From NCBI GenBank assembly GCA_903912525.1, contig CAIWHK010000065.1, forward strand, positions 62,001 through 126,000: DNA of 64,000 bases, given 5' to 3'. How positions within the stretch are numbered: the stretch's first letter is position 1; each line of letters starts with the position of its first letter. The notes below the pieces were generated by a model. It ran no database searches. It had not been told where the DNA came from and saw only the letters and a program-made list of their open reading frames with translations. Positions 50,053-55,075 of this stretch are shown piece by piece. This DNA comes from an uncultured bacterium. Lineage in GTDB: Bacteria > Krumholzibacteriota > Krumholzibacteriia > LZORAL124-64-63. The position numbers and the translations under genes were made by a program.

Positions 50053-51663
50053 ATGAACTATCTCATTTGTGCCGGTGGGTCGGGCGTGCGGGTGCTGGAG
50101 TCCATGATCCATCTCTGCGCGATGGGACTCGGACCGGACGAGCTTCGGGTACTCGCAGTTGATCCCGACAACGCCAACGCCTCACGGGTGAAGGCGCTCA
50201 TCGACAACTACCAGGACGTCCGAGGTCGGTTGGACGGAAACACCGGCCCGCGCCTGAAGCTGTTTCACACGAAACTGAACCTGTTCGATGTCGCCGACGC
50301 CACCAAGGGGCTGAAGGTCTGGAGCCCGGTCAATGCCGGCGGGACGCTCCAGGATCTCCTGGGCTACGGCAATCTTCCCGAGGCGACACAGGACATCGCT
50401 CATCTCTTCTTCACGAAAGATGAGCTGGGCATGGACCTTTACCAGGGATTCCGCGGCCATACCGCCATCGGCGCCGCCGCGATGTCGATGGTCACGCTCT
50501 TCAAGGACAAGCAACCGTGGGAGAAGTTCGCCAAGGATCTCCAGGACGACCTCAGGGTCGATGCCGGGGCCAGGGTCTTCATTGCGGCCTCTGTCTTCGG
50601 AGGCACGGGCGCGTCTGCGATTCATCCCCTGGCGCGGTTCGTCCGCAAGCTGGCGGCGGAGAATTCTGACCGGCTTCGTATCGGTGTCGCGGCACTGGTG
50701 CCGTATTTCAGCTTCCAGACCGATCGCCCCAGCACCACCGATGAGCGCTCGATGTCGGAGCAGGAGAAGAAGCGGGAACGGGAAAAGGCCCTGGCCGTCA
50801 GGGCCGAGCAGTTCCCGCTCGCCACCTATTCCGCGGCGCAGTATTACCAGCATCTGCGGAGCAATGACGACTGGGACTTCACTTCCATGTATTGGATGGG
50901 CGACAGCAGCCAGATGAAAGTCCCCTTTGCCCTCGGCGGTGCGGAACAGGCCAATCCGCCGCATTTCGTCGACTTGCTGGCGGCTTTGTCGGCACTCGGA
51001 TTCTACGTGCGCCGGCCGGAGAAGGCGGGCAGCCGGGGCGCGTGCTACTACGCCGGGCCGCGCCAGCGCGTGGAGCCTGCGCTGGGGCGCACCAACATCC
51101 TTGACTGGGCCGACCTGCCCCTGGCCGGACTGCAGAAGGACGCCGTCCGGCGCGACCTGCTTTCCGCGTTTGTCGCCGGTGTGGCCCATCTCGGCTTCTG
51201 CCGGCCGTTGCTGAACAACCCGGGACTCAACCAGCAGCCCTACTGCGTGCCTTGGTATTTCAAGCGGTTCATGGGGCGGCAGGAATCACTGACCACCCAG
51301 GGAAATGACGAAGCGATGCAGAAGCTGACCGAGTATTTCAGCGTGCACATGTTCCCCTGGTGGAATCAGGTTCTGGAGCCGGACAATGTCCGGCTGTTCA
51401 ATCGGCGTGCGATCCAGATCGACGACGAGAAGAATCTGCACATCGACCTCAGCCGGTTGGCCAATGTGCTCTTTCCAGACGACCCATCCAAGATCACGGC
51501 GGACGCGATCGATCGGTTCTTCACCGACATGGTGGAGGTTCCGCTCGACAGGACGGCCGGCAAGGGCACGGGAGCGTACCTCACGCTCTTGTCCCAGGCA
51601 TCCGACCGCTTCGTTGATCGCGAATACGTGAAACGCATGACCACGGAGGACCGCAGTGCCTGA
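50053..51663 (+). CDS. Tubulin/FtsZ-superfamily-like GTPase (Tubulin_2-like)
   Basis: MNYLICAGGSGVRVLESMIHLCAMG nucleotide-binding start, VLAVDPDNANASR, and FIAASVFGGTGASAIHPLARFVRK (GGTGxS T4-like loop). Confidence 0.78.
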   Translation: MNYLICAGGSGVRVLESMIHLCAMGLGPDELRVLAVDPDNANASRVKALIDNYQDVRGRLDGNTGPRLKLFHTKLNLFDVADATKGLKVWSPVNAGGTLQDLLGYGNLPEATQDIAHLFFTKDELGMDLYQGFRGHTAIGAAAMSMVTLFKDKQPWEKFAKDLQDDLRVDAGARVFIAASVFGGTGASAIHPLARFVRKLAAENSDRLRIGVAALVPYFSFQTDRPSTTDERSMSEQEKKREREKALAVRAEQFPLATYSAAQYYQHLRSNDDWDFTSMYWMGDSSQMKVPFALGGAEQANPPHFVDLLAALSALGFYVRRPEKAGSRGACYYAGPRQRVEPALGRTNILDWADLPLAGLQKDAVRRDLLSAFVAGVAHLGFCRPLLNNPGLNQQPYCVPWYFKRFMGRQESLTTQGNDEAMQKLTEYFSVHMFPWWNQVLEPDNVRLFNRRAIQIDDEKNLHIDLSRLANVLFPDDPSKITADAIDRFFTDMVEVPLDRTAGKGTGAYLTLLSQASDRFVDREYVKRMTTEDRSA

Positions 51664-54600: not shown

Positions 54601-55075
54601 CAACTTCGACATCAAACCGTCCGGCGTGGCGATCGACCCGACCGGCACCGAAAGGCCCAAGGAAGAGGTCGTCATGGGCCTGATGGCTGACCTGCCACTG
54701 GGCAACCGGAACGCGGCAGCCCAGGTGAGGGAATTCGACACGTCCTCGATCTTGTGTGAGATCGGGTGGAAGGACGCCCAGGGCAAGCCCGTGGATTGGT
54801 CACACCGGATGACGGCGGAGAGGTTCCGCGAGATGAAGGCGCCGCGCAATCACGACAGTGGCTACATGGCCCAGTTCCTGGGCAATGTCCTGCTCAAGAA
54901 AGCCGGAAGCCTCGTGGTCGACGACAAGGGCCTCAGTGGACTGGAAATCGACGGGGCGCAATTGCAGAACCTGATCGCGCAGTCTTCCGAAGGGGACCAG
55001 ACGGTTCTGCAGCCGGTATTCGCGTTTGAGCTCAAGACGATGATCGATCAGTACCTGAGGACCGCCAACCGCTGA
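51656..55075 (+). CDS. Large protein with C-terminal actin/Hsp70-superfamily ATPase domain
   Basis: KQWDVGIDFGTSNTQVTVKA (phosphate 1), LSVAIDVGGGSSDVAFWLAG (phosphate 2), IGLYFGGLGSSLLTWI (adenosine-like); about 560-aa N-terminal extension of unknown fold. GTG start overlaps the tubulin-like gene by 8 nt. Confidence 0.8.
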   Translation: MPERFFLNPLKESGCVLGAPAEGQWTGDEIRKDFLINYSQDIDLGRRGTGSPGVPELDLRRVHNVPSVFARPIQFSQALADINHPLHQTVQSQWRGLLATFALRQSIGAYIQPSLFEVPAVPEAAAATAKDRNLNVILRNQLPQPFGDWEKWWVFRCAGSLIGATSPWTIVYTPAEYRVPDTIPWRDADGLFMDPIRFFDPEGQHAPNQLLAMLSQWVEQLLVAFGDTGLPAWGFKDSLKDKASSVRLALQWWKDDLKHYVDPSMGAVETMPASAIDLDPRPYKPFLTALVGPAGDGAQPGDLLAATDHDIDLIVFSKKGIPAGTRVHGAVFSGDVNLERLEKSGIGPKGWKTQSGKTVDVPYRVIEDAFFSSKILEIGLEPTALECGSSKYALPLTADFFRFFSLRTLADRREMLTVREDNNEVHVRLQIPLRNGGSLRAEKVYNRDSIAKLPGIPVPVLAVWPDFGVEDWVENYAAFGAEPHPRGEVKLLAAPILEDGTVLDRTIEEGTQDHPRQSACRVWRAEKPVIGFAFYQRDAKGESALGVVIRDPISPPKAVQQLKQWDVGIDFGTSNTQVTVKAQDESPRPLPFKRRTLVLTSAPEANIPVVTRNLFPCTKDLEPSRPLPTALRIADATRYPESGMDTKWAELNFGPERNFFATNLVANVKWGTPGAPAGDDSIKQYLTGLLRAVLCEARAEGVGQLNFRWSYPRALPLGSYGRMENFWNTVASAIDATKAIRLGTPVSMTESEAVCRYFRTQPLAGLPVDANCLSVAIDVGGGSSDVAFWLAGQLVDISSFKIAANDILVPAARFPGFAEQLATACGASGVAVEALMERPGVVINALLTQAKDPRKQACDLQRPGAHPMVRALFAQFDSGQAPWLPVRSAIYLFFMGLTYYAGLHARDIVKRHKDVGGAADNGGGGAVPGGPAVVWHQKQIGLYFGGLGSSLLTWITANDALLREVLEFSFLKGLTLDFPDGANFDIKPSGVAIDPTGTERPKEEVVMGLMADLPLGNRNAAAQVREFDTSSILCEIGWKDAQGKPVDWSHRMTAERFREMKAPRNHDSGYMAQFLGNVLLKKAGSLVVDDKGLSGLEIDGAQLQNLIAQSSEGDQTVLQPVFAFELKTMIDQYLRTANR

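What the first reader, a model, noticed from the sequence alone, without database searches (positions are those of the whole stretch)
50053..55075. Translationally coupled tubulin-like GTPase and actin-like ATPase
Seen: a protein with an N-terminal nucleotide-binding start and GGTGAS T4-like loop overlaps by 8 nt a gene encoding phosphate-1, phosphate-2 and adenosine-like motifs of the actin/Hsp70 fold. Members of both eukaryotic cytoskeletal superfamilies are made from one message, with a membrane protein and vWA lipoprotein upstream. Inference: a membrane-linked two-filament or two-switch machine, possibly an envelope-spanning or conflict-type device.
Basis: partly seen in the sequence, partly recalled or inferred. 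Interest (0 to 1): 0.88.

Follow-up and report, generated by a model that had tools for sequence, protein, structure and literature searches.

The report
Conserved bacterial tubulin–actin gene pair
This bacterium carries, side by side on one message, a tubulin-family protein and an actin-family protein that have travelled together through at least eight bacterial phyla with a lipoprotein and a membrane protein, apparently as one envelope-attached machine; in a cyanobacterium, disrupting what look like the same genes impairs light-directed movement.

Summary
TUB (50053-51663, 536 aa) overlaps ACT (51656-55075, 1139 aa) by 8 nt. Structure prediction puts TUB in the tubulin/FtsZ superfamily (mean pLDDT 92) and the C-terminal half of ACT in the actin/Hsp70 fold (pLDDT 82). 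ATPase carboxylates and the GGTGA loop are conserved in 46-47 of 47 pairs. The pair is not local: VWA lipoprotein - multi-TM protein - TUB - ACT recurs in at least eight phyla. TUB and ACT distances correlate at r=0.96 (n=47), so they are inherited as a unit. In cyanobacteria 25 of 25 TUB-bearing genomes have ACT adjacent. A membrane-anchored coiled-coil gene usually follows; in some genomes ZorA/ZorB-like stator genes, HSP70 or DO-GTPase/GAP1 genes join. Parts are known: the tubulin family is Tubulin_2/FtsZl1 (2010), and Synechocystis sll0445-sll0447 (Tubulin_2, FtsA-like, DivIC-like) are needed for phototaxis and co-fractionate with pilus proteins (2021). I found no paper describing the module as a widespread system. 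Best reading: an inner-membrane, two-NTPase cytoskeletal scaffold serving trans-envelope machinery. Filament formation is untested; a defence role is neither shown nor excluded. Close relatives of the host lack it, so it was probably acquired.

The parts
48232..49575 (+). VWA: lipoprotein with vWA-like domain (lipobox AVAGC, MIDAS DDSQS); GTG start likely at 48232
   Evidence: family f3 HMM E=2e-76; MIDAS motif aligned in 36 homologues; no Pfam hit and no PDB sequence hit, so the vWA assignment is by motif
49575..50030 (+). MEM: small inner-membrane protein with 3-4 predicted TM helices; ATG overlaps the VWA stop (TGATG)
   Evidence: relatives in L002 and L003; a similar small multi-TM protein sits at this place in most loci, but not all are demonstrably homologous (hhalign)
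50053..51663 (+). TUB: tubulin/FtsZ-superfamily GTPase, 536 aa (Tubulin_2 family)
   Evidence: PF13809 5.5e-6; AF2 pLDDT 92.2; all top PDB folds tubulin/PhuZ/FtsZ/CetZ; GGTGA and N301 in 47 of 47
51656..53347 (+). ACT N-terminal region (about residues 1-564), conserved, no assigned fold
   Evidence: conserved in homologues; no Pfam or PDB sequence match in this region
53348..55075 (+). ACT actin/Hsp70-fold ATPase domain (about residues 565-1139): phosphate-1 D570, connect-1 E750, phosphate-2 D778, adenosine G946
   Evidence: AF2 pLDDT 82.5; Foldseek Hsp70/MreB/actin, best E 1.5e-8; D570, E750, G946 47 of 47 and D778 46 of 47
55190..57328 (+). D1: N-terminal TM + coiled-coil protein with C-terminal CxxC domain, the gene after ACT
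   Evidence: homologue directly after ACT in Paracidobacterium L003, E=1e-17; matches the general TM/coiled-coil gene at this place
57360..59270 (+). D2: secreted/TM protein with a CxxC C-terminal domain resembling D1's; start estimated
   Evidence: sequence; similarity to D1 seen by eye only (BLAST E 0.3)
59349..61358 (+). D3: coiled-coil protein with a C-terminal domain shared with D1
   Evidence: BLAST to D1 E=0.002, both hit the same L003 protein

Best explanation
The locus is one copy of a widespread, co-inherited module (VWA lipoprotein - multi-TM inner-membrane protein - TUB GTPase - ACT ATPase, usually followed by a TM/coiled-coil protein). SHOWN: gene order, both nucleotide-binding folds (by prediction), intact ATPase residues, co-inheritance, envelope-type partner genes. 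INFERRED: ACT hydrolyses ATP; TUB binds GTP; the two form one cytoplasmic complex held at the inner membrane by MEM and the TM/coiled-coil protein; VWA extends it into the periplasm, binding a metal-dependent ligand. The nucleotide cycles assemble or switch a scaffold that positions or energises a trans-envelope apparatus: type IV pili in cyanobacteria (from the Synechocystis mutants), a ZorA/ZorB-like ion-driven stator in others, and an unknown client here.
For: Folds. Pair adjacency: 46 of 80 genome loci, and all 34 without ACT are Selenomonadaceae/Selenomonadales paralogues or truncated contigs; 25 of 25 cyanobacterial TUB genomes; all four ACT-bearing genomes have TUB next to it. TUB-ACT distance r=0.96, Mantel 0 of 2000, n=47; VWA-TUB r=0.94, n=36. 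Catalytic D570/E750/D778 and GGTGA conserved. Envelope partners: OmpA, MotA_ExbB, SH3 and TonB_C, ZorA1 E=2e-40 and ZorB1 E=7e-71 in Roseomonas. Synechocystis sll0445/6/7 mutants impaired in phototaxis, proteins co-fractionate with pilus assembly proteins (PMC9880817); one transcription unit sll0443-sll0449 (PMC2633013), and a cyanobacterial locus here has exactly seven same-strand genes in that order (L135).
Against: No biochemical or filament evidence for these proteins. Sll0445/Sll0446 sequences were not compared directly; orthology rests on domain labels, gene order and clade. PilM (type IV pili) is not significantly enriched in TUB-positive cyanobacteria (24/25 v 233/269, p=0.15). Bacteroidales and rumen Selenomonads with the module are not known for type IV pili (own knowledge), so the client must differ. 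Synechocystis mutants also showed photosystem II effects, so the motility defect may be indirect.
Confidence: 0.6

Rival explanations
1. A defence/conflict system: the envelope module senses damage or phage entry and TUB/ACT act as an NTP-driven assembling effector or threshold switch, as proposed for DO-GTPase systems, or as a Zorya-type motor with a cytoskeletal effector.
For: ZorA/ZorB-like genes in L033, L039/L040, L064, L081 and ZorA-like in L007, L058, L063; DO-GTPase2 + GAP1-N2 after ACT in Bacteroidales L078 and the same gene families in L068; tubulin+vWA themes in GAP1-N2 systems (PMC7159879); patchy spread with no other sampled same-class genome carrying it; CHAT-like, kinase and HSP70 genes elsewhere in the window.
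Against: TUB and ACT match no PADLOC model; no ZorC/D/E or nuclease effector recognised in the neighbours scanned; the experimental precedent is motility, not immunity; window neighbours scanned lack DO-GTPase and GAP1.
Confidence: 0.22
2. A non-polymerising two-switch chaperone: ACT acts like an Hsp70 and TUB as a GTPase regulator in folding or assembling envelope proteins; neither forms filaments.
For: Best Foldseek hit of ACT is an Hsp70-type protein of the RAC complex; HSP70 genes follow ACT in L005, L009, L011; ACT is large with a conserved 560-aa N-terminal region; TUB has no canonical tubulin/FtsZ C-terminal domain and only a partly conserved T7-like W-x-D motif (D354 in 34 of 47).
Against: ACT's Pfam and PDB sequence matches are MreB/FtsA rather than Hsp70; no substrate-binding domain recognised.
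Confidence: 0.2
3. Membrane-remodelling/vesicle biogenesis complex as predicted for FtsZl1 (Makarova and Koonin 2010).
For: Same superfamily branch (PF13809), vWA and OmpA-type neighbours (PMC2875224).
Against: No direct evidence for remodelling in any member; FtsZl1 has a long coiled-coil tail absent here.
Confidence: 0.15

Closest known systems
Synechocystis PCC 6803 sll0443-sll0449, esp. sll0445 (Tubulin_2), sll0446 (FtsA-like), sll0447 (DivIC-like) (PMC9880817, PMC2633013)
   Same: Same order tubulin-like then actin-like then TM/coiled-coil, in one transcription unit; cyanobacterial relatives of this family have VWA-MEM-TUB-ACT plus three same-strand genes (L135)
   Different: Sequence not compared directly; downstream genes differ from D1-D3 here; the client in this organism is unknown
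FtsZ-like 1 (FtsZl1)/Pfam Tubulin_2 with vWA operons (PMC2875224)
   Same: Tubulin GTPase N-domain with GGTG loop; vWA and membrane proteins in the operon
   Different: No extended coiled-coil tail; the main text reports no actin-fold partner (supplement not read)
DO-GTPase/GAP1-N2 GTPase-centric systems (Kaur et al. 2020, PMC7159879)
   Same: Tubulin + vWA combined; DO-GTPase2 and GAP1-N2 follow TUB-ACT in Bacteroidales L078
   Different: There tubulin and HSP70 are separate, non-overlapping themes and 'actin-like' does not occur in the text; no DO-GTPase or GAP1 in the window neighbours scanned
Zorya ZorA/ZorB motor
   Same: ZorA/ZorB-like stator genes sit in the operon in several phyla
   Different: None in this window's operon; ZorC/D/E not seen; TUB/ACT are not Zorya components
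FtsZ-FtsA and MreB
   Same: Tubulin-fold plus actin-fold partners at a membrane is the logic of FtsZ-FtsA
   Different: Both proteins are far diverged, larger, and sit with a vWA lipoprotein; no evidence of a role in division

Membership tests
Tubulin/FtsZ superfamily | GGGTG(S/T)G-type phosphate loop (T4) and N-terminal G box | tested here: met
   GGTGA 47 of 47 and G8/G9/G11 47 of 47
Tubulin/FtsZ superfamily | Tubulin GTPase fold | tested here: met
   AF2 pLDDT 92; all 50 listed PDB matches are tubulin-superfamily proteins, E from 1.1e-4, prob 0.98-1.0, but TM-scores only about 0.2-0.4
Tubulin/FtsZ superfamily | Catalytic T7 acid | tested here: inconclusive
   Candidate W-x-D-x-P: W352 37 of 47, D354 34 of 47; structural equivalence not proven
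Tubulin/FtsZ superfamily | Tubulin_C/FtsZ_C domain | tested here: not met
   No Pfam hit; shared with other Tubulin_2 proteins (PMC9871819). Claim is therefore superfamily membership of the GTPase domain, not membership of the FtsZ or tubulin families
Tubulin/FtsZ superfamily | Nucleotide-dependent polymerisation | not testable with these tools
   needs protein
FtsZl1 / Tubulin_2 | PF13809 above curated cut-off | tested here: inconclusive
   window 26.3 v 27 bits; most homologues carry PF13809
FtsZl1 / Tubulin_2 | Extended coiled-coil C-terminal region | tested here: not met
   compact model of 536 aa
FtsZl1 / Tubulin_2 | Operon with vWA protein | tested here: met
Actin/Hsp70 superfamily | Phosphate-1 Asp, connect-1 Glu, phosphate-2 Asp, adenosine Gly | tested here: met
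   D570, E750, G946 47 of 47; D778 46 of 47
Actin/Hsp70 superfamily | Fold | tested here: met
   Foldseek prob 1.00, best E 1.5e-8
Actin/Hsp70 superfamily | Polymerisation (actins only) | not testable with these tools
   needs protein
Synechocystis sll0443-0449 system | Gene order VWA-MEM-TUB-ACT-coiled coil | tested here: inconclusive
   met in cyanobacterial relatives; Synechocystis sequence itself not retrieved (attempt failed)
Zorya | ZorA + ZorB in the operon | tested here: not met
   nine MotA_ExbB matches in the genome, none on the window's contig
DO-GTPase/GAP1 systems | DO-GTPase and GAP1 genes | tested here: not met
   no hit in the window neighbours scanned; not every window ORF was scanned

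The most novel reading that the evidence does not exclude
A previously unrecognised trans-envelope machine, spread over at least eight phyla, in which a tubulin-fold GTPase and an actin-fold ATPase work as one obligate hetero-assembly and, in several lineages, are coupled to a ZorA/ZorB-like ion-driven motor: a bacterial device joining both cytoskeletal superfamilies with a rotary-type stator.
Probability: 0.25. Interest if true: 0.92.

Novelty: new variant of a known kind. Interest (0 to 1): 0.72.

Why it matters
FtsZ-FtsA is the well-known case of a tubulin-fold and an actin-fold protein cooperating at a bacterial membrane (own knowledge). A second, independent pairing, inherited as a unit across phyla and attached to a vWA lipoprotein, would show that the partnership evolved more than once and would give a function to much of the orphan Tubulin_2 family. 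Because a genetically tractable cyanobacterium appears to carry it with a scorable phototaxis phenotype, the question can be tested directly now.

Tried and rejected
(1) T6SS: the ClpB/ClpV-like ATPase (8457-11516) and TssR-type vWA domain suggested a T6SS, but the ATPase scores best as ClpB and no other T6SS component was recognised among the ORFs scanned. (2) SrfB: no Pfam SrfB hit in any of 23 ACT homologues. (4) Locating the Synechocystis genome through its published CRP site gave one match in G427, lying elsewhere from the TUB operon and consistent with chance. (5) PilM co-occurrence as a test of a pilus link: not significant. (6) PDB sequence search with the TUB and VWA profiles: nothing meaningful. 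(7) MEM proteins as one family: hhalign links only some pairs. (8) No paper found describing the whole module; the library is open-access only, and paper supplements could not be read.

Full report
WHAT IS THERE. Four genes run head to tail on the + strand: a lipoprotein (VWA, 48232-49575), a small multi-TM protein (MEM, 49575-50030), TUB (50053-51663) and ACT (51656-55075). VWA and MEM overlap (TGATG), MEM and TUB are 22 nt apart, TUB and ACT overlap by 8 nt with a GGAGG stretch before the ACT GTG. Homologues start at the same residue. Three longer genes follow (D1-D3, 55190-61358); D1 has a homologue directly after ACT in Paracidobacterium. The window lies at 62001-126000 of contig C65 in a 4.29-Mb draft genome.

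FOLDS. TUB gives PF13809 Tubulin_2 just under the cut-off. An AF2 model from 106 homologues has mean pLDDT 92.2, and all 50 listed PDB matches are tubulin, PhuZ, FtsZ or CetZ. TM-scores are low (about 0.2-0.4), as expected when only the GTPase half is shared. ACT's model has mean pLDDT 82.5; Foldseek returns Hsp70-type proteins, MreB, ParM, FtsA and actin with prob 1.00, matching the sequence-level MreB/FtsA hits near the phosphate-2 motif. Across 47 pairs D570 (phosphate 1), E750 (connect 1) and G946 (adenosine) are invariant and D778 (phosphate 2) is in 46; in TUB, GGTGA, G8/G9/G11, D39 and N301 are invariant. So ACT is expected to be an active ATPase and TUB to bind a nucleotide. The T7 acid that completes the tubulin/FtsZ GTPase site is uncertain (W-x-D-x-P motif, D in 34 of 47).

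CO-OCCURRENCE. A scan of GTDB genomes with the TUB family gave 261 relatives, 80 kept. ACT lies directly downstream in 46 of them; the 34 without are all Selenomonadaceae/Selenomonadales, mostly a 461-aa paralogue that sits with an LCP-type and a kinase-like gene, or truncated contigs. In a sample of 294 cyanobacteria 25 genomes have TUB, and all 25 have ACT next to one copy; VWA is at hand in 21 of 26 loci, sometimes divergently oriented. In a sample of 197 relatives' genomes, the four with a true ACT all have TUB adjacent. TUB and ACT pairwise distances correlate at r=0.96 (Mantel 0 of 2000; n=47), VWA and TUB at 0.94 (n=36); shared descent contributes to such values, but they show the genes move together. 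Named phyla: Acidobacteriota, Bacteroidota, Nitrospirota, Calditrichota, Bacillota, Pseudomonadota, Cloacimonadota, Cyanobacteriota, with further titles from Omnitrophota, Aminicenantes and Gemmatimonadota. In the host's own class no other sampled genome has a true ACT, so the module was probably acquired.

PARTNERS. The VWA family has an N-terminal lipobox in 26 of 36 and an aligned MIDAS motif (DxS/TxSMxG), though no curated model hits it. The gene after ACT is usually a TM/coiled-coil protein. Beyond that, attachments vary by lineage: ZorA/ZorB-like stators in Roseomonas (E=2e-40 and 7e-71), Cloacimonadota/Fermentimonas and Phascolarctobacterium, and a ZorA-like gene in sponge Synechococcus and a Nitrospirae MAG; HSP70 in Calditrichota and Paludibacter; TonB_C+SH3 in Calditrichota; DO-GTPase2 and GAP1-N2 in a Paludibacteraceae MAG, with the same gene families in a Rikenellaceae MAG. 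These are envelope or NTP-switch components, the context expected of a trans-envelope machine.

PRECEDENT. Makarova and Koonin described FtsZl1 with vWA operons and proposed membrane remodelling (PMC2875224). Kaur et al. placed tubulins with vWA and DO-GTPases in predicted conflict systems, HSP70 being a separate theme (PMC7159879). A Synechocystis complexome study annotated Sll0445 as Tubulin_2, Sll0446 as FtsA-like and Sll0447 as DivIC-like, found them with pilus-assembly and photosystem proteins, and saw impaired phototaxis and altered photosystem II kinetics in the mutants (PMC9880817). The transcription unit is sll0443-sll0449 with a predicted CRP site (PMC2633013), and sll0443-0445 and sll0448 change in a lexA mutant (PMC4759255). 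In cyanobacterial locus L135 the seven same-strand genes are VWA, MEM, TUB (Tubulin_2), ACT (FtsA hit), TM/coiled coil and two more, the same count and order. I could not retrieve the Synechocystis sequences, so orthology is strongly suggested, not shown.

MECHANISM AND LIMITS. I favour an inner-membrane scaffold with two nucleotide switches serving a trans-envelope client. The client differs by lineage: pili in cyanobacteria if the mutant data are direct, possibly an ion motor where ZorAB-like genes are attached, unknown here. A test for a type IV pilus link across cyanobacteria was inconclusive (p=0.15). Filaments, enzymatic activity and direct TUB-ACT contact are untested. Novelty lies in recognising a phylum-spanning module with a constant actin-fold partner, not in the tubulin family or in the Synechocystis genes themselves.

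Noticed in passing
window 38084-47927 (-): Divergent cluster facing the module: ABC permease and ATPase, an SH3-like/TssR-type vWA protein (837 aa), a 905-aa protein and an Lcl_C-domain protein. No homologues near TUB elsewhere except generic ABC ATPases, so its link to the module is unproven.
   Followed up: partly
window 12349-28901: Regulatory island: ECF sigma factor (15831), CHAT-like/TPR protein (17472, CHAT by eye), Ser/Thr kinase (21588, by eye), CxxC-rich 843-aa protein and an 842-aa HSP70; resembles parts lists of NTP-dependent conflict systems.
   Followed up: partly
window 32684-35688 (+): Two tandem related lipoprotein-like genes with FGE-sulfatase (formylglycine-generating-like) domains; the first is Pfam-confirmed, the second judged by eye.
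   Followed up: partly
L025-L071 (Selenomonadaceae): A distinct 461-aa TUB subfamily without ACT, in the order LCP-type protein - kinase-like - small membrane protein - TUB, in many rumen genomes.
   Followed up: partly
L039, L064, L081, L033 downstream of ACT: ZorA/ZorB-like gene pairs without other recognised Zorya genes, joined to the tubulin-actin module.
   Followed up: yes
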